Shown in pieces: positions 11,757 to 63,190 of a DNA stretch of 64,000 bases. The position numbers and the translations under genes were made by a program. The stretch lies in NCBI GenBank assembly GCA_900073065.1, contig FJOG01000006.1, forward strand, positions 1,798,076-1,862,075, written 5' to 3'. Numbering within the stretch: position 1 is the stretch's first letter; every line of letters starts with the position of its first letter. The notes beneath the pieces are model-generated. The model had not been told where the DNA came from. It searched no databases and was given only the letters and a program-made list of their open reading frames with translations. Source of the stretch: Phialocephala subalpina (taxonomy: Eukaryota; Ascomycota; Leotiomycetes; Helotiales; Mollisiaceae).

Positions 11757-13180
11757 TTTGATTTGAAGAGCTTGAGAGGCAAGGAGGACTGGAATGCTTT
11801 GCCAAGGAGTTTTTGGAACACTGCAGTGATTGCAGAACCTCAGAAAACAAGTAGTAGTGCTCCTCGAAACCTGAAAGATGAGGAAGATTGGAACGTTCCG
11901 GGGAGATATACGTACGGACTTCGAGGAGCACAATGTTATTGTACTGGTAGCTTTTTGAGGCTCAGAATCGTACGTCAAGAGTCTAGTTCTATTCTCTGGA
12001 AAGCAGAGGCACGATCCTAGAATATAAGATTTTTAGGACGAGGAGCCTGCGAGGTTGTGAGATTCAACCGTCCAAACTGAATGGCGCCAATTGTCGCAAT
12101 CTCAGCATATGCTGACAGGGCTCTCTTGGCAATCCAATTGAGTTCCTTAGCAGTCATCCCTGTTTGAGTAATTTGGGTCACCGAATACAGGCACATTCGG
12201 GATTGCATGCGGCTGAGCGTCCAAGGTAAAAGCCCGATATTCTGACAAGAGGGTGGTCAGCCATTGGGGACCGATGCCTCGACCGGGACCAGTCCGACCG
12301 GGATGTTTCCGCGCGACCCTTCCCGGCGTACAGAGCTTTGAAACCTGACGATCAGGAGGCCATCGATCGACTGCAGAGATAAAGGTTTGAGGGTGTTCTT
12401 CAACGTGGGCGAGTGAAATATGTCTGAGGAAGCCGCACAGACTTTGCTGGCTACATTTACGCTTCGCCATGTCACCACTAACTCCTAAATGGACTGTGGG
12501 TGAAAGGTGGCGTTCTCGGTCGGACCAAACACACCTCGCCCAAATCCAGCCTGTCAATCCCCAGTGCAATAATGTCCATGCATACAGTTCTAACACCATT
12601 TGTAACCTGTTCACAATGAACAGAAGAGTACCTCTGGGCTTAGCTGAAAGTTGGGGCACGTTGGTGGCTGACTTCGACAGGGCTGGAGCAAAAGCGATCG
12701 CGAGCAAGAGGGGAATGGCTGGACAACTTTTTCCGTCTCCGGAACTCGACAGCCCGATATTCCATCGATTCCCATTCGAAGGCGACCTCTTCTAATCAAA
12801 AAGATGCATTGCCCTTCTCCAGACGCGGGGGATGCAGCTTCCAAAAGCAGTCATTCTCCGTCTCAAAATAGCTTGGCAAGCTTACGCTCTCCAAAACAAC
12901 GATGCACGCGAAACAAATTTCCGCCCCCAGAGCTGAATCATCAACATTTCAGCCGCTCGAACAGGCATGAGCATTTCCATTTTCTGTTTTGGCTCATCTC
13001 AGATGACAGTTCAGACGAAACTTCTGCCCACTGCAAAGACCGAACAACTGGGCGACTCAGTCAACATCAACAAGCAGCTGAGCACACCCAACTCATAAGG
13101 CTTCTCGTGCCATTTACGACTAAGGTCGATGTCCGTCGCCCAGGTTTTCACCATCACCTACATGAAATAGTGCCTTCACG
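11757..13180. other. Intergenic region upstream of the STAND gene
   Basis: It contains a 186-codon minus-strand open frame (12147-12707) and a 128-codon plus-strand frame (12804-13190). Neither has recognisable domains or clear codon bias, so I treat them as chance. The 3' part probably holds the promoter and leader of the gene starting at 13181. Confidence 0.4.
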
Positions 13181-16100
13181 ATGTCTGTAAGACGTTCAGA
13201 CACGCGGAAAGCCGCAATTGCTCGGTCTAATACCACTCGCAAACCGAAGAAGACTCTTGAGGATGTCAAGCAAGGCATCAGAACGCTTTATCCACCAACC
13301 GGATCTGATATCATTCCGGAAGTCGATATCGTATTTGTTCCTGGGCTCGGCGCCGATCCAATCAATAGTTGGCGATCAAATATCAACGATTTCAACTGGA
13401 CCTCAGACAAGGACGGACTGGTGAGAGACTTCCCAAAATCGCGAATTCTGCTGTATCTATATGAATCAGCGTGGACGGGGCCACTCAAGGTCAAACAATA
13501 TTTGGGCAACCTCGGATCAACTCTTCTCCATGGCCTGAAAATCAACAGGGAGAAATGCCCACGGCGTCCGATTGTTTTCGTCGGCCACAGCATGGGAGGT
13601 CTGGTTATTGCCAAGGCTATAACTCTTGCAGACGCGCGTAGGGACCAGTTTCCTGTAATGTTCGAGACTATAGCAGGTTGCATTTTCTTCGGAACGCCGT
13701 TTAGCGGTGCTTCTGCAGCAGCGGCGGCTAGTTTCTTTGCTTTGATTGGAGAAAAGTTTGACAAGGCGAATTCCTCAAAACTTCTTGATGTAATGAAACC
13801 TGGGGACGAAAGCCTGAGGGAACTGAAAAACGATTTTATGCGACTTGTCGGGAAATTGAGCCAAAAGATCGAGCTTTTTTGTTTTTACGAGGAACATCCA
13901 ACAAATTTTGCCAAACTAATCGGTCTACCGAGCTGGATTAAGACCCCGAAAGAGATCGCAGAATTCGTCACTCGCGATTCGGCCACCTTGCCTGGCATCC
14001 TTGATATGGGCCTTGCTTGCATCCATCGAGATCTTGTCAAGTTCGACGGCCCAAAAGATGAGCGATACCAGCTAGTTCGAAATCCGTTGAAGACAATCAT
14101 ACACGGAGCCCAGCTTGTGGTTAGAAACCGGCTCAACTCAACGCGCAATATCAACCATGAGACTATCACAGATGTCATGGAGGTTCTTGAAGGGGCTCAG
14201 ATCCAGAAGAAACGCAAAGCTTTAGGTGGAAAATACGCTGCATCTTCTTGGCTTACCAAGGAACAGCAGTATCGCGACTGGCTGTCAACTTCTTCCCCAG
14301 ATTATGATCTTGTTTCGCCTATCTCGCCCAGCTTACCAACTGATGCGAATGCTAGGGGTGTGGACTGCTTATGGATTGAAGGCCCTGAAGGGAGGGGAAA
14401 GACCAACAACGTGATCGCGGCCATTGACGAGATCGAGAAGATGATTATGGCCGACTTGGAATCACCAAGTGGCCTGGCGCCTACCCTGCTCGCGTATTTC
14501 TTCTGCGAGCCAATGGCAGACTATTGCACGGCCGAGGACGTGCTCAAATCTTTGTTGTGGCAGTTGGTCAAACAGCAAGGAGTGTTGGCCCCGTATGCCA
14601 AACACTTTGTCAAAAAGAAAGCCAAAGAGGATGCTTCAAAGTCAACGCCGCAATTGACAGTAGAGAACATGTGGCAAGTCCTCCAAGACATGCTTTCGGA
14701 CGAGTTCATTGGGAGCAGGGTATATTTCGTTATCAACAACTTGCATGTCCTTCCGGAGGACAGTGATTCGACAACAAAGTTGATGAAATTCATCAACTCA
14801 GAGCTGATGAACATCACAATCCCGAATCAAAAACGAGTGCCTGTCAGATGGCTATTCACTAGCAGGGACAAGTACGTTGTGCGGGAGGCTATGAAAGCTC
14901 CAGGAGTCCGTCTCATTGACCTTGAAGACGAGAAATACGAAAGCCAGGTCCAGCAGGAACTTCGCAAACATGCGTACCTCAAAGTCCGAGCACTGAGCGA
15001 GGAAAAGAAGTACAACAAGGCGGCAGCATACTTCACCAGCAGTTTGATTGGTAGACGGGCGCAAAATACACAATGGATCGATATCGCTTGCATCCACCTT
15101 AAGGAGATTCCTGAGAACGAGAACGAGCTCACAGTTCGTCACATCCTTGAAGATATGCCTCAAGACCTGGCATCACTTCTCGAGAGAGCTTGGCTACAAA
15201 TTTTCAGCTCGAATATTCTAGATGTCGAGAGGATCCACGAAATGCTACGGGCACTTGTTCTCACTTTTGAAGATCCAACAGAGCCTGAGCTGGGTGTCTT
15301 GACCGGTCTGTACTCTAAGGAAGAGGAAAAGAAGGACGGAGAGAAAAAGGATGAAGAAAAGTCGAAACTCCGTCAATTGGTGGAACGATGCAAGCCCCTG
15401 CTGGTTGTCAAGCGTACGGGTGGAAGTGGAACCGAAGTGAAGATCTGCTTTATGAACGTGGTTGTCAAGAGCCACCTCCTCTCAAATGCCGAAAAATTGC
15501 TGGGACTTTCAAAGGAAGCCACGGCGTGGCATCATGGAGTACTCTCCCTACGCTCTTTTTCTCACGTGATGGAACTCTTGAACTACCCGGAGCCAGAGCC
15601 CGAGCCAGAACCGGAGCCCGCTGAGGGCAAAGAAGGTGAGGACGAGGATAATGTAGGTGATTCTAGCGAGAATTCATCTGAAGCATCAGACGATGATGAA
15701 GCCGAGGACGACTCGGATGATGATGTGGAGGATGTCAGTGAAGACGACTCTGACTGGGACTCCGATTCAGAAGATGAAGAGATGGATGCGGAATCGGAGA
15801 AAGTCAAGGACACTGCGCTGGCTTACACAGTCAAACACTGGCTTCACCACGCCAGTAAAGCCACGGTGGAAATCGCGGAAGACTTGAGTTTGGAGGAGGA
15901 GTTTTGGAAACCAAAATCTCTGATCCGGCGGCGATGGCTCATTGAATATGCGCGATTAAATCCGTCGGCTTTTGAAGAGATTGACCTCGATCGAGATCTT
16001 TCTGCGCTACATGTTGCTGCCTCAGTTGGCTTTAGCCAGCTCGTTGTAGCCTTAGTCAAACATGGGCATCAAGATGAGCTCAATCTGCGTGATACAAACG

Positions 16101-18869
16101 ACGACACTCCGGTTTGTGATCCGTAAACCTTTCCAGAAATGTCCCACGACGCTAATGTTAAGACAGTTACATTTGGCAGCCTATTTCGGACGAGTCAACA
16201 TTGTCGAAGAACTGCTCAATAAGGGCGCCATCATCGACGATGGCAAAGAAGATGGAAATGACACCCCGCTGCACAACGCAGCCCTGCAAGGAAATGCTCC
16301 GATCATGAGAAAGCTCATCAACCGTGGAGCCGACATCAATGCATGTGCGCCGAACGTTGGTGGGTCGGTTGTCAATGCCGCCATTTACTCTGGTAACCGT
16401 GAAGCCATTAAGCTTCTGATTGACAAGGGCGCTTCCCTTGTCACAGTTGACTCTCAAGACGAAGATTACGATGGACCACTGTCTCTAGCTGCACAGCTTT
16501 CAGACTTGTCAATGTTTGAGTATCTCATCGATGCGTGCGCCGATAAATTGCCCCCTGAAGAATACGATAAAGCGCTGGTGGCAGCTGCGGAGGCTGGCCG
16601 AGTGGAGGTATTCTCCAAGTTGCTATCATACACCCACCCCCAGGAATGTTTTCAAGAAGCCCTGGAGCAAGCAACAGAAGAAGACAACTGGGACATCATA
16701 ATGATGCTTCTCGAACGCTACCAGGGCCAAGCACTTGATTGTAAAGATTTGTTCGAAGAAGCTTCTGGCACAACCGAGAACCAGGACAGGGTTCTCCAGG
16801 TGAGCTCATTGTCTCCCTTTTTCAAATATCTTAGGCTTCCTTGGAACTGCCCATGCATGGAAGAGTATACTAAATTGGGGTTTGTAGGCCGTGTGGAAGC
16901 ACGTCAACGGTGAACTTTTACCGGAAACACTTGATAAAGCGTTAATCAAGGCTGCGGGTTGTGGAAAACATTCCACAGTCGAAATGCTCCTTCGCGAGTT
17001 TCGCGCCAACCCGAATGCCGCGGACGAAGAGTGAGTACCATCAATTTGACCATTTACTGCATCACGGGCAGAATGCCCCTGAAATCTAGATTCATTCAAG
17101 TCGTTCAGAACTTACTGATGCTCAAATTAGGTGCGGGACTGCTTTGACAGAGGTCGCTTACAATGGTGACCTCAATCTCGTTAAACTTCTCTTGGATAAC
17201 GAGGCAGATGTAAAATCGCCAGATGGGTGGGCGTTACAGACCGCTGCAGCAGAGGGGCACGAGGAGATTGTCAAAGAACTTCTGGAGCGAGGTGCTGATG
17301 TGAATGCATGCACCGCAAACGAGAACTTCCCCGCAGGCACTGCGCTCCAGGCTGCTGCTGAAGCTGGGAAACTGGACATCGTCAAGTTGCTACTCAAGCA
17401 GAACAACATCAATCCTAACCTTGGTCCCGGGTCCGACACATGCCCTCTAATCGCCGCCACCGAGAGAGGAGAAGACAAGATCGTCGAAGTCTTAATCGAG
17501 GCTCATGCCAATGTCAATGTGTTTGGCGGATTTGATGGTTCTACGCCGTTGATCAAAGCCGCTTTATACTTGCCCAAGGAATCTGTGGAACTTATTTTGA
17601 AGGCCGGGGCTGATATCAATACACCGGACAACGAGGGCGACACTGCGCTTATTGCCGCTGCATATCGAGGAGATCAGGATTGTGTCGAATACTTGCTTGG
17701 CGAAGGCGCGGACATTATGCATTCCAACAAGGCAGGCTTGAATGCCATCCAAACAGCTGTTGAGAACGCGAGCGAAGAGTGTCTACCGCCGCTTGTCAAC
17801 CACGCGTCGGCAATTCTAAGTGCGATCAAAACCGCCATGGAATCGGGGAACTCCGTCGTCACGGATGTCATTCGAAGCGTGAAATTTGTCAAGCAGGAGG
17901 GAGACGGGCGCAGAGGAAGCGATGCCTCGTTTGTTGCGAATGACGATGCTGTCTTGTTCACCTCCAGTGTGCATGGGTCAGAGGACGGAGCAAATGACGA
18001 GGATCAGTTGATGCAGACCATTGAGACAGACCAGCCATCGTCAATGGGATTGAACTCACTCTTTGATCAGCCTTCCGAGCTCGAGGGTACCATTGAACCC
18101 AAACGCATCGATACTCCACCACCCACCACCTTTGCTGAACTTGGAGTGGATAACTGGTTTCAAGAGCCAAGCTCGAACTTCACAACAAATCAACCGACTC
18201 AGCAATGGACACCACAAACGGATACTCCTCTAACTCCCCAAACGAGGATCAAAAGAAAACCATCACCCGCAACCTCAAACTCTGGACAGCATTCACTGGC
18301 TGCCTCGCCTGGTCGCTCAGACTATGCCGGTGGCCCGTATCAACAAGAAGCCCCAACCCTGCCACCCAAACAACAGGTCGCGCCTTCCCTACCCCCCAGA
18401 ACACCTCTAGCCCAGTCCGCATCATCATACAATCCGAACCCTACTACACCGCAATACCAAACCTGGAGTCCAGATCAAAACACTTACATAAACTCGAACC
18501 AAGCAACATCCCCACCACAGAAACGACCACAATTTCAAAGTCCACCACCTGAAGGACAGCCTGCTCCGTTGAGGCCTTATGCGCCTTATAACCCACAATC
18601 GTATCCAGCGGAACAATATCCGATTCCGACACCGCCTTGGACCGGTGGTTCTTCCCCTCAGAGTCAAAGTCAGGCACAAGGTACTGGGTATTTTGTGGGG
18701 AATCCGTATGATGGGGATGAGTATGGTGGTGGGATGGGTGGAAGTGGGAATAGGTATGTCTTCAGCAGCAAGTTGATTGCGATAGAATGATGCTAATGTG
18801 AGACATAGGCCTGAGATGAAGGGTCAAAAGTCTTTCTTCAATATCAAGTTTGGGAAGAGGAGTAACTAA
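13181..18869 (+). CDS. STAND/NLR-like protein: alpha/beta hydrolase - P-loop NTPase - acidic linker - ankyrin repeats
   Basis: Five exons: 13181-16111, 16167-16799, 16888-17030, 17131-18753, 18809-18869. Phases agree and give 1796 residues. Domains in order: an N-terminal serine-hydrolase fold (DIVFVPGLGADPINSW about 50-65; nucleophile elbow VGHSMGG about 134-140); a NACHT-like NTPase with Walker A GPEGRGKT near 400-408; a Walker B position reading VYFVINNLHVL near 516, where the usual Asp is Asn; an EP-repeat plus Asp/Glu/Ser-rich linker (about 803-870); ankyrin repeats from about 938 to 1490 (for example TPLHLAAYFGRVNIVEELLN and ALQTAAAEGHEEIVKELLER); a Pro/Gln-rich disordered tail ending in FFNIKFGKRSN. 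This architecture is that of fungal NLR-like immune/incompatibility receptors. ATP turnover may be reduced by the altered Walker B. Confidence 0.88.
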
Positions 18870-23160: not shown

Positions 23161-23547
23161 NNNNNNNNNNNNNNNNNNNNNNNNNNNNNNNNNNNNNNNN
23201 NNNNNNNNNNNNNNNNNNNNNNNNNNNNNNNNNNNNNNNNNNNNNNNNNNNNNNNNNNNNNNNNNNNNNNNNNNNNNNNNNNNNNNNNNNNNNNNNNNNN
23301 NNNNNNNNNNNNNNNNNNNNNNNNNNNNNNNNNNNNNNNNNNNNNNNNNNNNNNNNNNNNNNNNNNNNNNNNNNNNNNNNNNNNNNNNNNNNNNNNNNNN
23401 NNNNNNNNNNNNNNNNNNNNNNNNNNNNNNNNNNNNNNNNNNNNNNNNNNNNNNNNNNNNNNNNNNNNNNNNNNNNNNNNNNNNNNNNNNNNNNNNNNNN
23501 NNNNNNNNNNNNNNNNNNNNNNNNNNNNNNNNNNNNNNNNNNNNNNN
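23161..23547. other. Assembly gap (run of N, 387 bases)
   Basis: All bases are N. It lies inside the ~610-bp repeat array, so the break is probably due to repeat collapse and its size may be nominal. Frames crossing it are artefacts. Confidence 0.99.
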
Positions 23548-35459: not shown

Positions 35460-37545
35460 TCATTCAAGTGTGATAAGTCTAGGTTCGCATTGTTCAAACC
35501 AATTCCAGTGCATCTCCCAGAGCTTTTGTCTTTCCTTGTTTTCCCACACCTTGGCAAATTGATAAATACCTAGCCGTGAATAGCAACCATTACCAGTGTC
35601 TCGCAAAGCGAGGCCTCGATGCCCCCTTCCATCCTTCGCACCATCGTTTGAAACATCTAAAAGATGCACAGTGGTGGAATCTACATCTCCCATAACGAAC
35701 TCTTTTTCTAAAGCATCCGGGTAAAGGCGTGCAGACAACAGTCCTTCTAATCCTTCGATGTGGGGGTCCCGGAGCTCATCTCCATTCCCAGACCATGATT
35801 TTGTTGGACGCACCCATCTAGCCTCTCTTATTCGGCCTCTGATTTCTAGTCGGCCAAGAATGACAGCTCCATATGGTGCGTCCCCTTTTGCCAATACCAC
35901 AAAGTGGGAAAGAATTTGAATCCGGTATATATAATGGGACGCCCAATCTCTTGGACGGTAGTCAACATTCCCATTAACTGCCACCCACGACCATGAAGGC
36001 CCTTGATAAATTGTTGGTCTGTTTATCAGGTCTCCAGTATGTCGAATCTTCCAAAGAAGTGACTCGGGTAACCCTTCAAGCCACAAGCCTGCGACATATT
36101 TGCCCTGTATCATGGTGTTAAAACGTTCAGCAATTCCAGAAACAGCCAAAATTCGATCACTCTTTTCTGTCAGGCCCCGACGAGTGTATGTATCGATTAT
36201 GTAGTCCCATTCCCCAAGAAGGCTTTTTTGATTGTCAGGGTCCGGCAAGGAAGATATCGGAAAGATTGTCAGTCTATCTCTTCTTTCAGGCGACCATTCG
36301 GGTTGGACTCTCCATCCGTCTGAATATCCATCCCTTCCTTTCGTCTCAGGACATATCCATCTACTCTGACGCGTGCCGAATTCTAGAATTCTAGATGAGA
36401 GAATGCGTTCCTGTAGAGCCCAAGCACGTTGGTCCAAAGGCTCCTTTCCTTCCGGAGTTATAGGACGAAAAAGCGTTACTGACCCAAGATCGCCGTTGGG
36501 GCATTGGAATGGAAGTTCAAAAACAAGTTCTGGGTGGTTTGTGACTTCTCTCACCTCTAAGAACCCCTCATGTACACTTGCTGGTCGCGAAGCACTAATC
36601 GTTATGGCTGCTTGGCTATAAATATGCGGCATCTGGGCAATTTCTTTCGCCTTATCCTCAACATCATCTTGAATGATACAAAGGCAGTCGATCCACAAAA
36701 ACCGCAAGCCCAACTCAGAAGTCGTAATGACAGCATCGTGAATAGTTTTTGGCAGCCCCAAGTATGGAATTGTTATCAAAAAGTTTTGAAGTGTGGCTTT
36801 TTTAGTCTTGATAGGTTGGTCCCCACCCCAACAATAACTCAGTGCCGCATAGGGTTCTGTCTTGCCTGACGTAGGATGTAATTTCAGACGCCACTTTCTG
36901 TCTTGGTGCTCAATCTCAATCAGCCTTGATGGCATATAACTTGTTCGACGGTTTCGGCACATCTCATGGATTTGGTGACATTCCGTGAACCATTTACGAG
37001 CCATATCAAAGCTATACTTTGATGCCGGCCTTATATTGACAGGTCGTGTACTGATATATTAAGCTGCGAGATTTTCTGATTAACGTTAGTGAAGCTACTA
37101 AAAGCAAGGATCTTTATAGGAAGATAGAGCTAGGAATTACTGAGGTGGCATATACTTTGAAGCCTTTAGAGCCATCTCCAGCGTAGCTTAATCTGGAATG
37201 CCAAGTCGTATTGTACCACGCGAGATCATGGATGGAATGCACATCAAAGCCAATCTGTGGTAATTGCTCTGTTTTCATGCATAGTTTGAGGAAATCCTGT
37301 TCTCGAATGTCCCGTGAGTCAACAAGTGGGTTCTCTGCTTCGATACATTGGCACAGTACACAACCTTCAGATGCGGCTTGAATCAAGTCCCTATAGGTGA
37401 AATCAAGGACAACCCCTAACTGCGATTTTGTTGGCCCTCCATGGTGGCCGCTGCCCCGAGAATTCGAATCACGAATATCAATAACTAGCTGTCGACAGTG
37501 CTTGCATGTATGCGGGGTTAGGATTACTAGGTCTGGGCATGCCAT
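35460..37545 (-). CDS. HET-domain protein; exon junction near 37.1 kb does not restore frame
   Basis: Exon 1 37141-37545 encodes a Cys-rich N-terminus (HTCKHCRQLV, CVLCQCIE) in 135 codons up to a GTAATT donor. The main exon (from about 37050 or 37004 to 35460) carries the full HET core: YAALSYCWGG, LGLPKTIHDAVITTSELGL, FLWIDCLCIIQDD, MPHIYSQAAITISASRP, DQRAWALQERILSSRIL and PSWSWVAVNG. Upstream of the Met at 37004 the same frame reads RPVNIRPASKYSFDMARKW, which belongs to the protein, so the acceptor should be CAG at 37051-37053. That acceptor needs two bases from exon 1, but every donor in exon 1 leaves none. Either a small exon is missed or one base was gained or lost, which would make the gene non-functional. 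Confidence 0.75.
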
Positions 37546-45668: not shown

Positions 45669-46655
45669 CTATCGCAGATTTGCAAACAAGTGTGCATGGT
45701 CCGTGTACCTGTTCCTCTCCGTCCACTCTTTCAGCGCTGCAAAGTTGTTGCAGACATGAGTAGTATTGCCTCCAGTCGTGTGCCATTGGCCCTTGCTTGT
45801 TAACCACGTGTTCTCGAGCGACATATCAGCGTTGCATAGAATCGATTGGCGAATATACTCGATGCAATGATCCATATGGTACATATCATGCTCTGTCAGA
45901 TGTTCTTTATTGTACACCTGAGTGTAGAAAACTTTCATCACAGCCTAGATATCATGGTTAGTGGGTGAACCCAAAGAGGAGAAGTTGAATCTCTCACCAT
46001 GCAATGATATTGATGGAAGACAGCTACTTGGTAGTGCGCAGGTTCTGAATCTGGCTCTCCGGTCGATGATATACGCACAAATCCTCGGCCAACTATGGAC
46101 AGTCAATGAATCGTTCAGGTTCGGATTATCGTGAAGAAGAGGACAGCTTACTAGGCCAATCTTCCTCCCACAGTGCATCTTTTTCTGGAGTTCTCGGGCC
46201 CATGTATCTTTCATCCTCGCCTGTCGAGAAGTACACCGTAGGTTTGTCGACTATGGTAATTCACATCAACGAGGTTCTTCTTCCCTGACAAGGCCACACA
46301 GTCCAAGGGAGTAGGAGTCACAGGACTTACATATCGGAGCAACTCTTGCAGGAGGAGCACCATTTTTGCCTTCGACCCAGGTAGCTTGGATCACTGTGGC
46401 TTGGTTACATCTCTGATTGAGGACTTTCCAGCCCGAGAACAGGATGGTAGAAGTGATGAGCAAGGCAATAGCCAGAATTGCAACACCGCTCAAAGCCCAG
46501 TATATGAGCCGAGGGACTGTGGCACGACCAGGGAAGGGAAGACGTTCCTGGAAGCTTTGCTTGTCGATGAAGGGCTTGTAGTCTTCAGCGCTGTCGTACA
46601 AGTCGACGACTTCATTTCGAATAGTCTGTTCTGAGCTTGAGGTGGTGCTGGACAT
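45669..46655 (-). CDS. UstYa-family (DUF3328) oxidative cyclase-like protein 1
   Basis: Four exons: 46331-46655, 46152-46250, 45998-46092, 45669-45944; all phases agree (264 residues). ATG at 46655 (MSSTTSSSEQ). A short cytosolic N-terminus precedes one transmembrane helix (YWALSGVAILAIALLITSTI), then the lumenal domain: KPTVYFSTGEDERYMGPRTP, ALWEEDW, GRGFVRIS, AVFHQYHC, YHMDHCIEYIRQ, THVCNNFAALKEW. The two HxxHC motifs (HQYHC, HMDHC) are the family signature and proposed catalytic metal site. UstYa proteins are copper-dependent oxidases/cyclases acting on Kex2-released core peptides in fungal RiPP pathways (ustiloxin, phomopsin, asperipin). First of four copies around one precursor gene. Confidence 0.93.
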
Positions 46656-47526
46656 CGTGTTGGTATTTTGGTATGCGTTGTGACTGCGGTACTGGAAAAG
46701 ATTTTTGGAGAAGGACGCTGGGAAAGTGACTGGATGGGGTAGACACTCTAAGTGGTCATCTACTGAATGGAAGTAAAGAGAGGTACTCTCTATGGACGTC
46801 GGCGTCGTTGAAGCAGTCAAAGGTCGGCAAGTCGGATGCACATCAGCAGGTTAGTGCTTGTGATTATCAGCTGGTAAGCACGTAGGATTCGGACATGATG
46901 CACCTGCAAGTCTTTTTGGCACCGGCGACCTCCTGCGGGGTCGTGCTTCTAACTTTATTGATATCGATGTACCCTAGTTGAACTAAAGCTTATGCAGAGG
47001 ACATGCAAGGGAGTACTAGGGTATCGGGAACTGTATGCATGCATGGTAAGGTATGGATGAACAACCCCGTCTTACATGGTATCGTGACTAATGTGAGAAG
47101 CTCGCAAGGGTCTGCACCGTTTTCCCAAATTTGAAGATGCTCTGGGTTACGATTTGCCTCACCGGATACTGATCCCAAATGGTAATACCGCAATGCCGCC
47201 CTGAGGTTCTCAATCCAGACCTGCGGAGCGCATGATGATGAATTTAAGCATGGGTAGATTGGTGTTGTCTTGTTTTCTTTCCTCTGGGACCTCGTGTAGG
47301 CTCAGCAGCAATTCATTCAAGCAAACTTCATCAGAGACAGTCATGTGTTGTTGTGAAGGAAGTAAAAATCTATTCCTGCTTCTGACTCCATTCTCGACAC
47401 TACAACTATCAAAAAGCGAGTTACAAGTCCCATGTTCGAGCTCAAGGTTCAATCTGATTTCTCCCTCTTTGTGTAACCACTGCATCTTAACTCTTAAGAT
47501 TCCCTCTCAATATTCACGAAACTCAT
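46656..47526. other. Intergenic region between UstYa genes 1 and 2
   Basis: Contains the promoter of UstYa 1; only short frames are seen. Confidence 0.4.
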
Positions 47527-48700
47527 TCAAGGAAATCCCCTTGGTGCGGGCTTCAAGGCTGTCTTCCCGTCATATCTCTCATTCATCCACTCCCGCAGGT
47601 CCCCGAAATTGCGGCAAGTATGCAGGACGTCACTGTCCGCATAGTTTCTCCCCACAGACTCATAGTATCGGGTTGGCACTGGGGTCAAATCACCAGAACA
47701 CATGACGTACTGGCGAATTTGCTCAAGGCAGTGCCCTGAACACATGATCAGCATCAGTTCAAATTGAGAGAAGAGTTGATAGCCTACTATAGTGAAGTCG
47801 GTTGACAGGTAATTTGGCATTCTTAAAGTAGTACTCTGGCCAGAGCGACTTGCGAAGTTGATTCTACGTCAAGTCAGAAGTTGCACTTCATTCAATTTTG
47901 ATCGGGTGGAGAGCGCTTTCATACCACGCAATGAAGTGTATGGAATATATCGAGTCTAATACTATTTGTTAGTCGTCAGATGACTTGAACTCTTGGCCTA
48001 ACTCACCCAGCAACATAGCCACCATGGGCTTCATTCCAGAAATGTTTCGCTTCGTCTCCCCAAGTATCAAAGGCTTCTTCCTCAGAGATGAGGATATATC
48101 GACCTATGTTAAAGTCAATTGAGTTGAATCTGAAAATAGGAGGAGAAGTGATGGTCAAAGTGGCTAATTTCTTACGATCAGTCAAGTCATCCCACAGCTC
48201 ATCAAGCTCCGGTGAAGGGTCCACGACATATTCAGTTGGATCTGGGTGCGGCACAAATGCAGTTGCGTTGGAGTCGAACTGTGGACTTCCCGTAAAAGTC
48301 TTTTGTTCAACTCGAATTGCCACACGGGCAGGTGCTGTCGCTCATGTGTTAGACGATCATCCCACGGAATTTGAAAGGAAGACAAACCAAAGTCAGTGAC
48401 ATATCCTCTGGCAAAAGAGCCCAACCCTATTTCATTTGTTTTCTCCCTGAGGCTGATGTAGGTGTGAAGAGAGAGTGAGCTAAAGACGATTGTCAGAATC
48501 CATGGAAGGGCAGTCCAGAATTTGGTGAGCCTCGAGGTTCGGCGTTGGATGGGAGCATGAAAATGAGGGATGAAGCTCTCGGAATCTCTTTCAGATGAGG
48601 TTTTCTCCATTGAATTGGTGGATTCAAGATCTTCAATTGGTGAAAGAGGACGATAGTCGGGCTTGAGACGTTGTTGCTGGAAGGACATCTTTGGGAACAT
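47527..48700 (-). CDS. UstYa-family (DUF3328) protein 2
   Basis: Six exons: 48388-48700, 48176-48334, 48007-48103, 47925-47961, 47788-47863, 47527-47735; all phases fit (296 residues). It has a long N-terminal tail, one transmembrane helix (FWTALPWILTIVFSSLSL) and the lumenal domain: VAIRVEQKTFTGSPQFDS, PELDELWDDL, RYILISEEEAFDTWG, then HTLHC, NQLRKSLWPEYY, HYRHCLEQIRQYVMCSGD and VLHTCRNFGDLREW. Both HxxHC motifs are complete (HTLHC, HYRHC); the second is created by an exon junction. Same strand as UstYa 1 and 3, 0.9-1.3 kb apart, so co-regulation is likely but not as an operon. Confidence 0.93.
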
Positions 48701-49971
48701 CTTGATTGATGATTTTGTTGACAGTGTTGACTTGGGCGGTTGAGACAGCAGAGTTTGGCAGAAGCTTTTGTGACAAGCTAGTCTGAGGCGAAGTTGCTGA
48801 GGATTGTGTCGGAGTTATTGAAAGAGGGGACGTTTCCTGAAGAACACTGACCGGGTATTCCGTCCCCGCCGAGCTTCAGCAGCGGACGTTGAGCCGTTGA
48901 GCGGGCGCTACAAACTTGGCTACGCCATGTCCTTGCCTTCTGGACTAGCTACCATGAAGTCTGGATTTTGGGAGCATCTTAGGAGCTTGGGCCAATCAAA
49001 GATGCATGTCTAGCGCATGTGCGGCACCCTTAGGCTTGAAGGATTATGGTAAACGATAGCTTTGTTCAATACCCACCTTCCTTTTTTGCTAGAAGATTTA
49101 CACGAGTCTACTCCATTGCTTATCGTATGTTTCATCGCTGACGGTGGTTAACGTGAGAGCTGTCAGTCTCCAAGTGTATGCTTGGTCTTGCCCCAAGCAT
49201 GGGCAACTAAGCGAGCTGTCAGACAGTATTTCAGCTCAGCGCTATTCCCTGACCGCCATTCCCGCACAAGTAATCTAGGATAAGTAATCTAGGATAAGAA
49301 ACTAATCCGGCCTTCCAACTAAGAAATGCAGACGCATCAGGAACGGGTAGATAGATAATGGGTGGTCAGCTTTCAGAACGGTGGTTGGCACGGCAAAAAC
49401 CCTGTCGGCCATGTCGGGTATCACGCAATTGCGGGCCGATTACGTGCAGGGGGTAGGGATTATACGCCGGAGGCTACCGAGGCACAGGAACCCGACTGCT
49501 TATTGCAACCAAGAAGCTTGTTTCAACAACAGCAGACAGCGCTACAGCGTTGCTTTGCCTGCTAATCTAACCTCAGCTCCACAATCACAAGCGTCATTAT
49601 ACCGATTTTCCAGCTATCCTCGAACATGATAGCTTTACTCATCAATGTAAAATTAAGATTTTGTTGGGATAACAGTCGTATCATGGCTTACCTCGTAGCC
49701 GCACTATCAAGTGCACCGTATCTGTATTTGGGTATGTGCTGGGAAATGCTGGCTGTCTCCGAGGATATTTGGTAATCATTGTCTATTATAATGACTGCAT
49801 TGCTCCTTTCACATGTCCTACTAATTTAGCAAACGGGCACTGAGAGATATGACCCTTAAAACTTCTCAAAATGTCTGATTTGGTGGATTAGATTCAGGCG
49901 AGAATGGTGAACCGTGAAAATAATTCATTTTTGACGATGTATCATTTATCCTCGCTTCTAAGATTCTCTTC
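48701..49971. other. 1.3-kb intergenic region between UstYa genes 2 and 3
   Basis: Contains the UstYa 2 promoter. A short tandem AGTAATCTAGGATA occurs twice at about 49268-49298. No gene seen. Confidence 0.4.
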
Positions 49972-50975
49972 TCAACCTCGCTCAACGGACAGCCCCGAAA
50001 TATTCCTCTTTTCTGCAAAGTCCCAAATAGCATCAAAATTCCTGCATGTATGCTTGATGCTAAAATCTGGCATGTATGGAGGTGACCTGGTTAGGTCTTG
50101 ATGAAGTGTGATAAGTGTCAAATCACCATGACACATCAGAACCTGTCGAAGGTAGTCGGTGCAATGGTCTTGGGAATGTCAGTCTTGGAAGTCGTCTTTG
50201 CGTTGTAGAGATTGCCGAAGAGATTACCTAAATGCATTGATTTGGAATGATCTGATTCTTTATGACTTGATGTGCCATAGACAGCTTTTCTGAGATAGTT
50301 CTGGCCTGTAATTAGCAAGGTAGAAAGGATCAAAGCGGTGGAAGAAGGGACACTACCAAGCAATGGAGCTGATGAAACACTTCGATTGTGACGAGGTACT
50401 GGCCAGGGTGCTTGATTACTTGCGCCGTGTCGAGATCAAGCTCTTTGTATTCAGACGGAGTGAGTGAGTACATTCCGACTACATTTTTATCTTCATCAGC
50501 TCAAAGCTCAATTTTGAATAGTGGGATTATGGGAGAAATGAAAGACCGAACAGACCACTCGTCAAGTGACGCCATCTTTCATCAATCCATGGCGTGGGAA
50601 TGCCTTCGTAGAGAGTCGCAGGCTCAGGGCCTTTTGCGAAGCCACTGGGTGCAAAAGTGACTTCTTCATACTGCACAATATTTTCCGCCCAGGCTACAAT
50701 ATCTCTCAATCAGCAATGGAACATTGGACCTGAAGAGTTGACTGACGAATTTCGTGTTTCAAAAGTTTGTGAGGAGCACAGGAGTTGTTGAACTCAGGCC
50801 AGGAGATCAAGATACTTGATACAATGACAAAAACATGAATCAATACAATGTAGAGCCGAAACAAAGATACTCGGAGAATCAGCAGGATTCGTTGAGGTGG
50901 CATATAATTTTGATCCCCCTTCTCGCTGCCTTGCTCTTGGTCGGGAACCGCAGAGTACAAGAATCTTCTAAACAT
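49972..50975 (-). CDS. UstYa-family (DUF3328) protein 3
   Basis: Exons 50747-50975, 50559-50693, 50357-50478, 50228-50300 and 49972-50168 are in phase (251 residues). ATG at 50975 (MFRRFLYSAV). One transmembrane helix (LFRLYIVLIHVFVIVSSILI), then WAENIVQYEEVTFAPSGF, TPWIDERWRHLT, GQYLVTIEVFHQLHCL, NYLRKAVYGTSSHKESDH, MHLDHCTDYLRQVLMCHGD and IKHTCRNFDAIWDFAEKR. HxxHC motifs are HQLHC and HLDHC, both complete. It is divergent from UstYa 4 across a 674-bp promoter region holding a 13-bp element shared with the precursor gene. Confidence 0.92.
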
Positions 50976-51649
50976 GTTAGGCAGAAAGATGAATTGTTGG
51001 AGGAATAAAAAATGAAGCGTTGGAGAGCGGGAAAAGTTTCTTTTGCTTGGGACTTTGAAGTGAGGAGGTAGTATCTTGGGTGAAAGAAAGCTCGAGCACT
51101 GTGGAAAATACCAGGATGTCAAGAGTGGCCTCGACCAACTTCATTGTAAGACAATAATAGTTTCGTTATTGGGAATAATTCTTGCCGCTGAAATACAGTC
51201 AGGTCTGCTGCAAAAGAATGCAACATCGGGAAGGTTGGCTATTGTTCTTGAAGGCCGGAGTGGTCCGATTCGACAACTCGCAAAACAGTCCAAGGCGGGC
51301 TCCACGTGCAGCGGCCGAACAGCAAAGAACTGGAGTACGACACCACAGAATTTTTGGGGATGTTCCACCAACTAAGCTGACATGTTAATACCGCAGGGGC
51401 AGGGGACCCCGGTCCTTGAAGCTGCTTCCACCGACGCTTTGCGCCTATTTATGTAGCCTCCTCTTGATCACTTGACAATCAATTCTTTAATTTCGCGATT
51501 GGAAGCTTATATTGCAAATTTCGCGTGTTGAAACTGAGGTCTTGAGGAGAAGTAGCACCGGGAAAGTAATTCGCACTTGGCAGCGCGGAGAATCTTCATG
51601 TTCGCTTGTCCAAACAACCCCTTTTCACTTCTTATCACACATCATCGTT
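50976..51649. promoter_or_regulatory. Divergent promoter of UstYa genes 3 and 4
   Basis: A 674-bp gap between head-to-head starts. It contains CAGCGGCCGAACA at 51309-51321 and other CGG/CCG half-sites (for example around 51253-51270), as bound by Zn2Cys6 activators. Confidence 0.5.
51309..51321 (+). promoter_or_regulatory. Shared 13-bp cluster element, copy 1
   Basis: CAGCGGCCGAACA, identical to 53328-53340 upstream of the precursor gene. It includes an inverted CGG pair (CGGCCG), a typical binuclear-zinc-cluster regulator site. Regulatory role is inferred. Confidence 0.45.
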
Positions 51650-52676
51650 ATGGAAACATCGACGAGTTACCGTCCAGTTCATCAAAAAGACTACGAGAAT
51701 GAGGCAGACGAGGCCTTGCTAGGACCAAGAGAGACCAACAGATTGCCGAGACGATACGATAATTACCTCAGTCTTCAGCCTGTCGTATTCCACCTCCTGA
51801 TATTTGCATTATACTCCTCTGTCGTTTGGTACAGGTTCAGCAATATATGGACTGAGCAAGAATGTATTCAAAGAATGTCTTTGTGGTGTATGTAACCCAA
51901 AACTATCCTCATGGTACAGAATTGACAGCCATGGCAGCTCCTGCAATGGATGCGATTGAATACAAAACGGTCACCATAAATGGCAATATTGTTCAGCGTA
52001 ATGAATACGTGGGGACACCTCGCCCGGAGCTCGAAGAAGCATGGACAAGAATATCGACAGGTAAGCTTGGCTTGCTACCACGATAAAACGAACATGTCTA
52101 ATTCTAAACTCATTTGAAGGGCCACCAGCTCTGCGACTTTCAGCAGAAGAACTCAAATTGATGAATAGATCCATGACGGCTCATGACTATCATCAGCTTC
52201 CAGAGGAAGCTGGGGGTGGTTACCTTGCCACCTTGGAAGTCTTCCATCTGCTTCATTGTTTGGTACGTTGCCCTGAACATTTGACAAGTTTGGAAGCTAC
52301 AACAATTTTGACAAGCAGAACTCCTTACGTAAAGCGACATTCCAAGAATACTACCCAGAAATATTTGAAGATGAGACCCGTGAAGGTCGCCATGTCCATC
52401 TTGGTTCGTTGCTTTCTCCAGCTAATATTAGCCGAGAACTAACATTGAATGCCAGACCACTGCGTCGAGATATTGCGGCAGCATCTCCAGTGCTCGGGAG
52501 ACGTCACTCCAATTGCTTTCTATGATGTTCCTACGCAGCTAACACCGCTGCCGGATTTTTCTACTACGCATAAGTGTAGGAACTTTGATAGAATCCTAGA
52601 TTGGGCTAATGGAGAGGCTGGACTTGAGAGTGGCAGGCTTGTGCCATGGGGTGAAGTTTTACCAGGTGTTGCGTAA
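51650..52676 (+). CDS. UstYa-family (DUF3328) protein 4
   Basis: Exons 51650-51887, 51938-52060, 52120-52262, 52319-52403 and 52456-52676 (269 residues). For intron 1 (GTATGT donor) the acceptor at 51935-51937 gives WSPAMDAIEYKTV, fitting the family; the next upstream acceptor is also in phase. Features: N-terminal tail, transmembrane helix (VVFHLLIFALYSSVVWY), EYVGTPRPELEEAWTRI, GGYLATLEVFHLLHCL, NSLRKATFQEYYPE, HLDHCVEILRQHLQCSGD and HKCRNFDRILDWANGE. HxxHC motifs HLLHC and HLDHC are intact. It is the only UstYa gene on the precursor's strand and the closest to it (0.86 kb). Confidence 0.92.
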
Positions 52677-53327
52677 TTCATCTTTTGGAATTCAGATATC
52701 ATCTCAATTCTGTCACTTTGAAATTCTCAAAGCGTGAGATTTGAGATCATCAATTTGAATGTGTTCACCTCCAATTGTGACCCCTCCTGAACGATCTTTG
52801 TTTGGAAAATGAAAGCTGAGAAAGCATGAAACTACCACTACTGGGCACCTATAGAGCGACATTTTCTTTTGGAAAGCTCGGGGGTATTCAGGATTTGAGA
52901 ATATCTCACAGACCATGTTCGTTAGTGAAACACTCGTAGCCTGCACTGGACAACCTTCTCCCCACTGGGATGGAGATACAGTCAGCGGTCATCAGGCGCG
53001 ACATGCGGTGAAGGATCATAGTAAGACCTGAAAGTGACGGTCCACAATTTCTCACTTCCCTGTTACGGATAATGGAGTAGTGCTTGGATATAGCTCGGTC
53101 TGTTGATCAGCCCGAGCACAACTCCTCGTCCTGAAAGCCATGGGAGTGGAACATTCGGATGTGACGTTGCCAGCTACTGCATAGTGTCAGAAGGTCTAGA
53201 AGCACGTCGTATGCACTCCAAATTACATACTTTCAAAACGAGAAGCATTTCTCGGAAAGTCCTCTCGGCTCACCCCGAATGCACATAATTCCCAGTAACC
53301 TCATTCAGAACAGCAGTGTAACCACTA

Positions 53328-53340
53328 CAGCGGCCGAACA
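53328..53340 (+). promoter_or_regulatory. Shared 13-bp cluster element, copy 2
   Basis: CAGCGGCCGAACA, 209 bases upstream of the precursor ATG and about 82 bases before the TATA-like box. Identical to 51309-51321. Flanks differ, so it is not part of a longer repeat. Confidence 0.5.
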
Positions 53341-53409
53341 CTTCCTTCTACGGAATTCAAATTGAGTAAAGGTGATGTGACAAACATGCTGGAATTCAGA
53401 AGAAAAGGT

Positions 53410-53417
53410 TATAAGTA
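53410..53417 (+). promoter_or_regulatory. Probable TATA box of the precursor gene
   Basis: TATAAGTA, 127 bases before the ATG, followed by a C/T-rich stretch typical of strongly expressed fungal genes. Confidence 0.45.
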
Positions 53418-53536
53418 GACTGGCATCTTCTCCATACCAAGCAGGCTTTTGAGCACTCAAGCAAACTCTCTACCTTTTCAGTTTCTCGAGCTTCTGAAAA
53501 CAGTCACTTTATAATCCTAAGTCAATCCTCAGCAAG

Positions 53537-54052
53537 ATGAAGCCTACTTCTGCACTCCTCGTCGTTCTGCAGTTTGCAGCCGTAGCTTTGGCATTGCCAC
53601 ACGGTTCCGGTCAGTACTTACCTACCTTGTTGCGGCGTTTTTTTTTTTTTTTTTTGATCTGATAACTGACAATCGAAATAGACAAGCGAGCCGATCTTAG
53701 CGCCCTCGTTGACGACGAACTGTACGCATCCTACGATAAGGTCAAGGCCAAGCGTGCCGATCTTGGAGCGCTTGTCGACGACGAGCTCTATGCTTCATAT
53801 GACAAGAAGAAGAGAGCCGACCTCAGTGCCCTTGTTGATGACGAGCTGTACGCTTCTTACGATAAGAAGAAGCGTGCTGATCTAAGTGCACTCGTTGACG
53901 ATGAGTTGTATGCATCCTACGACAAGAAGAAGCGCGCCGATCTGGGAGCTCTTGTTGACGACGAGCTCTATGCATCCTACGACAAGAAGAAGCGCGCCGA
54001 TCTGGGAGCTCTTGTTGATGACGAGCTCTATGCTTCCTATGACAAGAAGTAA
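53537..54052 (+). CDS. RiPP precursor peptide: secreted protein with six Kex2-flanked LYASYDKK repeats (dikaritin type)
   Basis: Exons 53537-53609 and 53682-54052 give 147 residues. The intron (53610-53681) has donor GTCAGT, a run of 16-18 T and an AACTGAC branch. Residues 1-20 (MKPTSALLVVLQFAAVALAL) form a signal peptide. From residue 26 the mature part is six near-identical repeats, each starting after KR: ADL(S/G)ALVDDELYASYDKK. Repeat 1 is two residues longer (DKVKAKR). Each unit ends in basic residues before the next KR. Signal peptide plus tandem KR-bounded repeats with a Tyr-containing C-terminal core is the precursor design of ustiloxin, phomopsin, asperipin and epichloecyclin. The core is probably within LYASYDK; DLxALVDDE would be the recognition part. 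Flanked by four UstYa genes and a peptidase gene. It could instead be a repeat cell-surface protein, but the context argues against that. Confidence 0.93.
53684..54049 (+). repeat. Six in-frame repeats (66 + 5 x 60 bp) inside the precursor gene
   Basis: Units begin (AAG of Lys-Arg) at 53684, 53750, 53810, 53870, 53930 and 53990. Units 1-4 differ at many third codon positions while keeping the protein unchanged; units 5 and 6 are almost identical in DNA, so the last duplication is recent. The only amino acid variation is Ser/Gly after ADL and the VKA insertion in unit 1. Confidence 0.95.
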
Positions 54053-54121
54053 ATAATGTCTTGTCCCAAACTTTCAGGCCGAGCGGGAAAGTGGCCAAAT
54101 AGGGTAGATCGGCGGGAGGAA

Positions 54122-54361
54122 TTATTGGATGGGTGGAAGTTCGGTCGGAGGAGTTTGTGTAGCTGGTTCATGCACAGTCTTTACTCTCAGTGCTTGGATT
54201 AGAGGACTTTCCTTGCTTGAAACTGTCAAATGAGAAGCTGTTTCCATGAAGTTCTGATTGGTCGCAATCTGAATCTCGTGATGCCTGTCCTGACCTTGCT
54301 CCCGCATTCCAAGTGCTGTGACCAAAGTAGAACACAACGTAATCAAAAAAATGAAATTCAT
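54122..54361 (-). CDS. Possible small secreted protein (79 residues) inside the RiPP locus
   Basis: ATG at 54361. It starts MNFIFLITLCSTLVTALG, a good signal peptide with likely cleavage near the LG/MR boundary, and then is hydrophilic (HHEIQIATNQNFME, PPTELPPIQ) with no Cys and no KR-bounded repeat. It lies between the precursor and the peptidase, opposite strand. Overlapping frames are short. It could be a pathway accessory, an unrelated small secreted protein, or chance. Confidence 0.35.
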   Translation of the reverse strand: MNFIFLITLCSTLVTALGMREQGQDRHHEIQIATNQNFMETASHLTVSSKESPLIQALRVKTVHEPATQTPPTELPPIQ

Positions 54362-54580
54362 TCAAGACTGCCGAGATCTTTCAGATTCTGACCCACGTTA
54401 CATCAGAGGTCTGGACATCGAATCTGAGTAAGCGAGAAGTGATGGTCGGTCAGCTGGCAGCTGCATTAGCCGTTAGGCTGTTGGACGATAAGACACTAGC
54501 CCACCCCCAGGATACTACTTCTCTCTATCAAACAGCGAGCTTCCCGCACTGTATGTTGGAAAGTTTTAGAAGTCCGTTCG

Positions 54581-56305
54581 ATGTTGACTTCCGTACTTCC
54601 AAATGCTGTGCAGGCCTTCTGCTCAGTCTTCTTCTTTGCTTCGAAAAGTCATCACACGGATCATACGCCTTCCTTAGCAGTATCACTCCAGCCTCATCTC
54701 CTGAATGGTAGCTACTCGATCTTCACCCATTTATCAATACAAGCTGAGTCGCTCTCACTCGGCACCAAGTTCCTCACCATGCCTCTCGAGATGGGACATG
54801 TTCCCACAACCAACTATAGCACATCCAATCCCATCACAGCGTACGACTCCTTTGGCTCACTCGAGCTTTACTACCAGGATGACGACAGACTGCGTCGCAC
54901 CTGGTATCCCTTCCGATCCACGAGTGGAACCATAAATTTAATCTTCACTGCATATCCACGACAAATTGTGCCTACCACCAGACCAGGGCCACGCTTTGAC
55001 CTACGAGAAGACCAAGGAGGACTCATTGGCAGCGGGGTATCGTTCATCCCCGAACTCGCTTTCATTCCCACAGAGACAGAAATGGAAATCTCTGTTTCAT
55101 GGGACCTCTCTCATTGTCCACCAGACACCAAGGCAGTCTGGACTTACAGCGAGGACATCACTTCCCATACCATAGGCAACATAGACACACTCTCCAAAGC
55201 TGTCTTTACCGTGGGTCCTCTGCAAGGAACTTCCACAAACATAACGCTGATCTCAAACCACACCGAATCATTTGGAATTTACTGTTTCGGAACACCTCCT
55301 TTCTCTCTGCAGGATCTCTTCGAGCGCCTCACACCCCTCTTTCAACAAATGGCATCCTTTTTCTCGGACGAATCCGGAGGATATAAGATCTTTCTTCGTC
55401 GCTCCACAACACGTTCCTACGGTGGGACGGCATTTCATCGGAGCTTTGTCTTCGAATGGTCTGATGACATGGTCGAGATGATCGCTCTCAACCTCGACGC
55501 AGCATTTGAACTCTTGGCTCACGAAATGGTGCACAACTGGCCAAAGCTGGATAAATGTTCCATTGATGATCCATGTGGTGCCAATAGAACTTGGTACATG
55601 GAAGGCATTGCTGTGTACTATGCTGTAGTACTTCCATATCGGTTCGGGCTGTATGATACAAAGCGGTTTCTGGAGGTGGTGAACGGCAATGCGCAGGCTT
55701 TTTATACCAGTCCGCTATTGAAGCGGTCGAATGCTGAAGTCTCGGACTTGGGATGGAGCACTTTTCATGGACAAAGAGTGCCGTACTTCAGAGGCTTCAT
55801 GTTCTTTGTGCTACTGGATGGTTGGATCAAGAAGGCTTCCGGAGGAAAGAGAACTGTAGATGACATTGTCCTGGAGATGTTGAGACGAGAGCGGAATGGA
55901 CTTTCGTATGGGCCTGATGAGTTTGTCTCTCTGCTTAGAGGCGAGCTGGGAGAGGAGAGCGTCAGAAAGTACGAAGCGATGAGTGATGGTGAACCTTTCT
56001 TTGACAGAGAAGATGGCGTGTATTTGGCTCTCAACTTCACAAGAAGTGATGCTCCGCAATATGAGCTGGGATTCAACGAGTCTTCAATCTCAGAACATAA
56101 GATTATTGGGCTTATTACTGGATCTCGGGCCGCTGAAGCTGGGTTGAAGGAAGGTGATGAGATCATAGATGGAAGTCTTTATGGATGGACAGCAGACTCG
56201 TCTGATAGGAAGATGAAGCTCAAACTGAGAAAAGAGGGCGAGGTTGTGGACATTGAGTATTCGCCAAGAACTAAATACCTTGTCGAATCGTGGCAATGGT
56301 CATAG
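54581..56305 (+). CDS. M61-like zinc metallopeptidase with a C-terminal PDZ domain
   Basis: A single 574-residue exon from ATG 54581; an internal Met (MPLEMGHV, near residue 67) is a possible alternative start. Layout: N-terminal beta domain (SLELYYQDDDRLRRTWYPF, several N-glycosylation sites such as NITL and NHTE), catalytic region with zinc-binding LLAHEMVHNW (HExxH) and downstream Glu in WYMEGIAVYY (third ligand), helical segment, then a PDZ-like ending (IIGLITGSRAAEAGLKEGDEIIDG). This order matches glycyl-aminopeptidase (M61) proteins. Hydrophobic N-terminal residues could form a signal anchor. As the only peptidase beside the precursor, it may trim Lys/Arg-extended or N-terminal residues from Kex2 fragments (inference). 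Other DUF3328 RiPP clusters also contain a peptidase. Confidence 0.85.
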   Translation: MLTSVLPNAVQAFCSVFFFASKSHHTDHTPSLAVSLQPHLLNGSYSIFTHLSIQAESLSLGTKFLTMPLEMGHVPTTNYSTSNPITAYDSFGSLELYYQDDDRLRRTWYPFRSTSGTINLIFTAYPRQIVPTTRPGPRFDLREDQGGLIGSGVSFIPELAFIPTETEMEISVSWDLSHCPPDTKAVWTYSEDITSHTIGNIDTLSKAVFTVGPLQGTSTNITLISNHTESFGIYCFGTPPFSLQDLFERLTPLFQQMASFFSDESGGYKIFLRRSTTRSYGGTAFHRSFVFEWSDDMVEMIALNLDAAFELLAHEMVHNWPKLDKCSIDDPCGANRTWYMEGIAVYYAVVLPYRFGLYDTKRFLEVVNGNAQAFYTSPLLKRSNAEVSDLGWSTFHGQRVPYFRGFMFFVLLDGWIKKASGGKRTVDDIVLEMLRRERNGLSYGPDEFVSLLRGELGEESVRKYEAMSDGEPFFDREDGVYLALNFTRSDAPQYELGFNESSISEHKIIGLITGSRAAEAGLKEGDEIIDGSLYGWTADSSDRKMKLKLRKEGEVVDIEYSPRTKYLVESWQWS

Positions 56306-62992: not shown

Positions 62993-63190
62993 AGAAATCA
63001 CCGCGTTCCTATAGCCTTTCTCCGAGCAGGCTCTCCCGAACACCTTGGCGTGGCCGTAATAAACATTCGAGATGCCCGAAAATATAAATCCAGAAATCAC
63101 CGCGTTCTTATAACCTTTCTCCGTGCAAACTCACTCGAATACTTTAGCGTGGCCGCAATAAACATTCGAAATACTCGAAAATACGGGAAA
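62993..63190 (+). repeat. Tandem 99-bp duplication with strand-symmetric transitions
   Basis: Copy 1 62993-63091, copy 2 63092-63190, both starting AGAAATCACCGCGTTC. About a dozen of some fifteen differences are C-to-T or G-to-A in copy 2, and the frame remains open through both (RNHRVxIxFLRA repeated). Confidence 0.8.

What the first reader, a model, noticed from the sequence alone, without database searches (positions are those of the whole stretch)
45669..56305. Apparently undescribed dikaritin-type RiPP biosynthetic locus
One 10.6-kb stretch contains a secreted precursor with six KR-flanked repeats, four UstYa/DUF3328 proteins with complete double HxxHC motifs, and a zinc peptidase. This combination defines fungal UstYa-type RiPP clusters (ustiloxin, phomopsin, asperipin-2a, epichloecyclin). 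The repeat core LYASYDKK matches none of the cores I know, so the product should be a new Tyr-containing, probably cyclised peptide. Having four UstYa genes and, within the window, no tyrosinase, P450 or methyltransferase is also unusual.
Basis: partly seen in the sequence, partly recalled or inferred. Interest (0 to 1): 0.95.

Follow-up and report, generated by a model that had tools for sequence, protein, structure and literature searches.

The report
Fungal cyclic-peptide (dikaritin-type) gene cluster
A fungal genome carries a small gene cluster that looks built to secrete a repeated, tyrosine-containing peptide and crosslink it with UstYa-type oxidases; it is a genuine but ordinary new member of a large known class, and at least three sister loci with other peptide cores lie in the same genome.

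Summary
Window 45669-56305 of a 68.1-Mb fungal genome encodes four UstYa/DUF3328 proteins, each with two HxxHC motifs once spliced, a 147-aa secreted precursor with six KR-delimited repeats (ADL[S/G]ALVDDELYASYDK) and an M61-type zinc peptidase. The repeats are not chance or fresh copies: pS 0.72, pN 0.03. Best reading: a dikaritin-type RiPP locus, in which Kex2 cuts out the repeats and UstYa enzymes oxidatively crosslink a Tyr-containing core (YASYD or LYASYD). No product has been seen.

A published survey lists 1,758 such precursors beside DUF3328 genes; phomopsin has five of these genes, asperipin-2a needs no tyrosinase. At least three more UstYa loci in this genome carry their own repeat precursors (cores near LYKTN, IYSYYAxP, SFYK), and no tyrosinase was detected within 58 kb of any of 33 UstYa loci. 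The string YASYD was not found in the papers searched; published supplementary catalogues could not be checked. The M61 peptidase, where S41 peptidases are usual, is the only odd part, and its membership rests on adjacency alone.

The parts
45669..46655 (-). U1, UstYa/DUF3328 protein, 264 aa, 4 exons, HQYHC and HMDHC, N-terminal hydrophobic segment; lowest Pfam score of the four
47527..48700 (-). U2, UstYa/DUF3328 protein, 296 aa, 6 exons, HTLHC and HYRHC; its N-terminal hydrophobic segment is weak (1.41, below the 1.6 mark used)
49972..50975 (-). U3, UstYa/DUF3328 protein, 259 aa, 5 exons (second intron acceptor ambiguous), HQLHC and HLDHC
51650..52676 (+). U4, UstYa/DUF3328 protein, 269 aa, 5 exons, HLLHC and HLDHC; divergently transcribed from U3
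53537..54052 (+). Repeat precursor, 147 aa; exon 1 53537-53609 encodes the probable signal peptide, exon 2 53682-54052 the repeats
53684..54049 (+). Six tandem repeats KR-ADL[S/G]ALVDDELYASYDK, each preceded by KR; probable core YASYD/LYASYD
54581..56305 (+). M61-type metallopeptidase, single ORF, 574 aa, HEMVH plus an invariant Glu 27 residues after the first His; C-terminal stretch resembles a PDZ domain (recalled motif, no Pfam match). Cluster membership inferred from adjacency only

Best explanation
A dikaritin-type RiPP locus. The precursor enters the secretory pathway by its signal peptide (inferred from hydropathy). Kex2 cuts after each KR, and trimming of the trailing lysines leaves 16-mers ADL[S/G]ALVDDELYASYD (inferred; one Kex2-type P-domain match is present in the genome). 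The conserved acidic ADLxALVDDE part acts as a recognition segment built into every repeat (inferred). Membrane-anchored, copper-dependent UstYa oxidases act on the C-terminal core YASYD or LYASYD, most likely making one or two Tyr side-chain crosslinks and perhaps other oxidations, since four diverged copies suggest divided labour (inferred from characterised relatives). A peptidase, perhaps the neighbouring M61 enzyme, then removes the recognition segment (speculative). Shown here: gene content, motifs, repeat conservation, linkage. Not shown: expression, processing, product, bioactivity.
For: Four UstYa proteins with both HxxHC motifs; hydrophobic N-terminal segments over the 1.6 mark in U1, U3 and U4. 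Precursor with hydrophobic leader, six KR repeats and two Tyr per repeat, 0.9 kb from U4. Strong purifying selection on the repeats (pN/pS 0.04). Three other UstYa loci in the genome also carry such precursors: C43:1614375-1614754 (3 repeats), C112:1343324-1343774 (7 repeats), C34 near 1607464 (5 repeats); the first two share the layout of one intron right after the signal peptide. One Kex2-type P-domain match. In a survey of 1,461 strains, DUF3328 genes sit on average 3.09 genes from repeat precursors, and 65.6% of DUF3328-linked precursors have Tyr in the repeat (PMC7329392). RiPPs made from such precursors and cyclised by UstYa homologues are what is called dikaritins (PMC10512285, passage). 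UstY-family enzymes are described as having a dicopper site (PMC12186524, passage). UstA cores are flanked by conserved ED and KR (PMC6514808, passage), comparable with DDE...KKKR here.
Against: No expression or mass data. The whole 19-residue unit is conserved, not only the presumed core, so conservation does not mark the core's boundary. The hydrophobic segment of U2 falls below the mark (1.41). No homologue of the precursor was found at E<=1, so no comparison with another species supports the cluster. No regulator, transporter or methyltransferase was recognised, but only 24 of 76 window ORFs of at least 130 aa outside the spliced models were profiled; a pattern search found no Zn2Cys6 or P450 haem motif in the window and three flanking 10-kb stretches, and would miss motifs split by introns. 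No shared promoter motif once the overlapping U3/U4 promoter is counted once. UstYa proteins also serve non-RiPP pathways (PMC12048977).
Confidence: 0.87

Rival explanations
1. The precursor is a linear Kex2-processed signalling, pheromone or cell-wall peptide, and the UstYa genes are neighbours serving something else.
For: 78% of repeat precursors in the survey have no DUF3328 gene nearby (PMC7329392). The entire 16-mer is conserved, as expected if the whole peptide is the product.
Against: Four UstYa genes in 7 kb beside it; three further precursor plus UstYa pairs in the genome; in the survey, putative pheromone precursors have no DUF3328 gene nearby, with three exceptions; no pheromone match in Pfam.
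Confidence: 0.08
2. A RiPP locus in which only some of the four UstYa genes act on this precursor and the M61 peptidase is a bystander (a narrower form of the best explanation; the confidences overlap).
For: U1-U4 are highly diverged from one another (24-36% where aligned), and U2 is closer to a UstYa on contig C46 (43%) than to its neighbours. M61 relatives occur in fungi, a Clostridia bin and metagenomes (57 at E<=1e-10); in the 13 aligned, no clear signal peptide is seen by eye. The only other M61 match in the genome is on a contig with no UstYa match.
Against: Compact arrangement with all four UstYa frames intact after splicing; in phomopsin three UstYa homologues are essential for cyclisation and desaturation (PMC10512285, passage).
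Confidence: 0.35
3. The repeat ORF is a non-coding tandem array or a pseudogene.
For: Tandem array with a 60-bp period.
Against: High synonymous and very low amino-acid divergence between repeats, hydrophobic leader, open frame, GT-AG intron.
Confidence: 0.01

Closest known systems
DUF3328-linked Kex2-processed repeat proteins (KEPs/dikaritins), 1,758 counted in Umemura 2020 (PMC7329392)
   Same: Signal peptide, repeats between Kex2 sites, Tyr in the repeat, UstYa genes close by
   Different: Repeat sequence: YASYD not found in searchable text, its presence in the supplementary catalogue unchecked. Four UstYa genes against a mean of 1.7
Phomopsin cluster (five DUF3328 genes)
   Same: Several UstYa proteins around one repeat precursor; Tyr-containing core
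   Different: Core YVIP with a Tyr-Ile ring and a tyrosinase; here two Tyr, no Ile in the repeat, no linked tyrosinase detected
Asperipin-2a cluster (AprA/AprY)
   Same: No tyrosinase in its four genes; core with several Tyr; ether links from Tyr to beta-carbons
   Different: One UstYa gene, plus a transporter and a reductase; core FYYTGY
Ustiloxin B cluster
   Same: Repeat precursor whose cores are flanked by acidic ED and KR; two UstYa proteins
   Different: Needs tyrosinase UstQ; core YAIG; further tailoring enzymes not recognised here
Epichloecyclin (gigA)
   Same: Repeat precursor with Kex2 sites giving Tyr-linked cyclic peptides
   Different: Four repeats and another core; sequences were not compared here

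Membership tests
Dikaritin (UstYa-type RiPP) | Precursor with ER signal peptide | tested here: met
   Hydrophobic N-terminus, mean hydropathy 1.85 over 19 residues; hydropathy only, no signal-peptide predictor was available
Dikaritin (UstYa-type RiPP) | At least 3 repeats of at least 8 aa between Kex2 sites (survey's criterion) | tested here: met
   Six repeats spaced 20-22 aa; criterion from PMC7329392
Dikaritin (UstYa-type RiPP) | DUF3328/UstYa gene near the precursor | tested here: met
   Four, over the Pfam cut-off, each with two HxxHC
Dikaritin (UstYa-type RiPP) | Tyr in the repeat (typical, not obligatory) | tested here: met
   Two Tyr in each of the six repeats
Dikaritin (UstYa-type RiPP) | Oxidised/cyclised peptide product dependent on UstYa | not testable with these tools
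   Needs mass spectrometry and gene deletion
Ustiloxin/phomopsin subtype | Linked tyrosinase (UstQ/PhomQ) | tested here: not met
   Nearest PF00264 match at E<=0.001 on the contig is about 525 kb away
Ustiloxin/phomopsin subtype | S41 peptidase in the cluster (reported as conserved, not in every cluster) | tested here: not met
   The only S41 match on C43 is at 312 kb; the locus is at 1.84-1.85 Mb
Ustiloxin/phomopsin subtype | YxIx core | tested here: not met
   Core region is LYASYD; no Ile in the repeat
Peptidase family M61 | Profile match, HExxH zinc motif, downstream Glu | tested here: met
   PF05299 29.8 bits against 22; HEMVH and Glu (E368 of alignment A1, 27 residues after the first His) invariant in 13 aligned sequences
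Fungal alpha-type pheromone precursor | Match to a pheromone profile | tested here: not met
   No such Pfam match at E<=0.01

The most novel reading that the evidence does not exclude
A tyrosinase-free, four-UstYa dikaritin pathway in which the two tyrosines of a five- or six-residue core are both crosslinked by division of labour among the UstYa enzymes, and in which an M61 metallopeptidase, not an S41 peptidase, frees the product; the locus is one of several parallel precursor-plus-UstYa units in one genome that each carry an in-repeat recognition segment but make different cores.
Probability: 0.2. Interest if true: 0.5.

Novelty: new member of a known kind. Interest (0 to 1): 0.3.

Why it matters
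A 2022 review counts five dikaritins reported from filamentous fungi (PMC10512285, passage) against 1,758 DUF3328-linked precursors predicted in 2020, so a compact locus with a defined repeat and calculable product masses is a useful target. This genome holds at least four such loci with different cores, a natural comparison for how UstYa enzymes recognise their substrates. It does not overturn anything known.

Tried and rejected
Precursor homologues: 159 candidates, none at E<=1. Weak evidence of absence, since the precursor has an intron and many entries appear to be single-ORF predictions (inference). Precursor paralogues in the genome: besides its own two exons only a chance-level match, E 7.43 on C20. 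Tyrosinase and S41 linkage: none detected. Shared promoter motif: a first test suggested more shared 9-mers than expected, but it counted the overlapping U3/U4 promoter twice; corrected, nothing significant remains. UstYa (U4) sequence against solved structures: none at E<=0.001. Precursor against the C112 precursor: no BLASTP alignment, so the likeness of their repeats (AD...LY) is an impression only. NCBIfam gave nothing for the M61 ORF or five flanking ORFs. Pfam on five ORFs of the flanking stretches L015 and L016 gave one match, an alcohol acetyltransferase. First splice models of U2, U3, U4 and the precursor were wrong and were replaced. The repeat scan also flagged ORFs in L016 and L025 and antisense frames of two of the arrays; these were dropped by eye as scattered or low-complexity matches. 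The text search returned 86 papers, of which the 20 listed look unrelated by title; it says nothing firm about the other cores.

Full report
What is there. Splicing by hand gives four UstYa proteins of 264, 296, 259 and 269 aa, each with two HxxHC motifs, all over the Pfam cut-off for PF11807. Between U4 and a 574-aa peptidase ORF lies a two-exon gene for a 147-aa protein: hydrophobic leader in exon 1, six repeats in exon 2. The peptidase matches Peptidase_M61; HEMVH and a downstream Glu are invariant in the 13 sequences aligned.

Is it real. Among the six repeats (19 codons compared, 15 pairs) the proportion of synonymous differences is 0.72 and of non-synonymous differences 0.03; one residue varies, Gly or Ser. 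The array has therefore been kept as protein for a long time. The presumed spacer is as conserved as the presumed core, so either the spacer is a recognition element or the whole 16-mer is the product. UstA cores are likewise flanked by conserved ED and KR motifs (PMC6514808, passage), which favours the first.

Context in the genome. A UstYa profile search gave 56 exon-level matches at E<=0.001, which group into 33 loci at 10-kb linkage. I held the window or 18-27 kb around 9 of the 33 loci (window; C43:1.61 Mb; C36:42 kb; C46:155-164 kb; C8; C112:1.10, 1.34 and 1.41 Mb; C62:487 kb), and a repeat scan found KR-repeat precursors at 3 of the 9. Five further loci, held only as about 3.5-kb pieces (L002, L003, L005, L006, L008), gave none in the same scan. 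A homology search with one precursor then led to another beside the UstYa match at C34:1.609 Mb. The remaining 18 loci were not examined. Sister precursors: C43, three repeats DVGIYSYYA[V/T/P]PRKDKDKR; C112, seven repeats of the kind ADADTATLYKTN-KR; C34, five repeats of the kind NEDADAGMSFYKEKR. In C112 the last repeat ends at LYKTN with no KR, which suggests where the mature C-terminus lies. The last repeat here ends YDKK, so trimming of lysines to YD is plausible but not shown. No tyrosinase match at E<=0.001 lies within 58 kb of any of the 33 loci.

How it most likely works. Secretion, Kex2 cutting at KR, lysine trimming, oxidative crosslinking of the Tyr-bearing core by UstYa enzymes, removal of the recognition segment, export. 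Only gene content, motifs and conservation are shown here. The chemistry is inferred from characterised relatives: UstY-family enzymes are reported to use a dicopper site, for instance for the Tyr-O to Phe C-beta ether of asperipin-2a (PMC12186524, passage), and three UstYa homologues are essential for cyclisation and desaturation in phomopsin (PMC10512285, passage). With Tyr at positions 1 and 4 of YASYD and no Ile, an asperipin-like crosslink is likelier than the ustiloxin Tyr-Ile type (inference). Membrane anchoring is supported by hydropathy for U1, U3 and U4; U2 is below the mark.

How new. Umemura 2020 (PMC7329392; abstract and outline, passages, part 1 of section 6 and section 13 read) reports 7,878 such precursors in 1,345 of 1,461 strains, 1,758 of them with DUF3328 genes among the 15 nearest genes, 1.7 DUF3328 genes each on average, and 2,560 stand-alone precursors without homologues. 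A unique core is therefore normal for the class. A full-text search for YASYD found one unrelated paper; supplementary catalogues could not be consulted. A 2025 lichen survey (PMC12048977; abstract, results and part 1 of 2 of the discussion read) reports 987 RiPP clusters, 827 of them singletons, and notes that UstYa genes also occur in non-RiPP pathways. Other papers were seen as passages only: PMC9233826, PMC6339444, PMC6514808, PMC12186524, PMC10512285.

The M61 gene. It is one of two M61 matches in the genome. It has 57 relatives at E<=1e-10 among 7,853 candidates (the window's own protein included), in named fungi, a Clostridia bin and unnamed metagenome contigs. In the 13 aligned no clear signal peptide is seen by eye. 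S41 peptidases are the ones reported as conserved in dikaritin clusters, and the only S41 match on this contig is about 1.5 Mb away. It may be a cluster peptidase or a neighbour; nothing here decides.

Verdict.

Noticed in passing
L018:1976-2355 (C43:1614375-1614754): Second repeat precursor (three DVGIYSYYA[VTP]P repeats) about 1.4 kb from a UstYa gene, some 183 kb before the window.
   Followed up: partly
L029:1325-1775 (C112:1343324-1343774): Third repeat precursor (seven LYKTN-type repeats, pS 0.78, pN 0.05) near UstYa genes; some repeats start EP, AP or VP after KR, like the Ste13 signatures described in PMC6339444.
   Followed up: partly
L034:559-912 minus strand (C34): Fourth repeat precursor (five SF[YH]K repeats, read as one exon) about 1 kb from a UstYa gene.
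   Followed up: partly
C35:774447 and C35:780892: The genome's only other M61 match lies about 6 kb from a tyrosinase match, with no UstYa match on that contig.
   Followed up: no
window 13166-18787: ORF with an NPHP3-type NTPase domain and a weak alpha/beta-hydrolase match, followed by ankyrin-repeat ORFs: looks like a fungal NLR-type protein.
   Followed up: no
window 4895-6952 and 35463-37058: Two HET-domain (heterokaryon incompatibility) ORFs.
   Followed up: no
window 62993-63183: 99-bp tandem duplication, 1.9 copies.
   Followed up: no
window 23161-23547: A block of N, a gap or a masked stretch.
   Followed up: no
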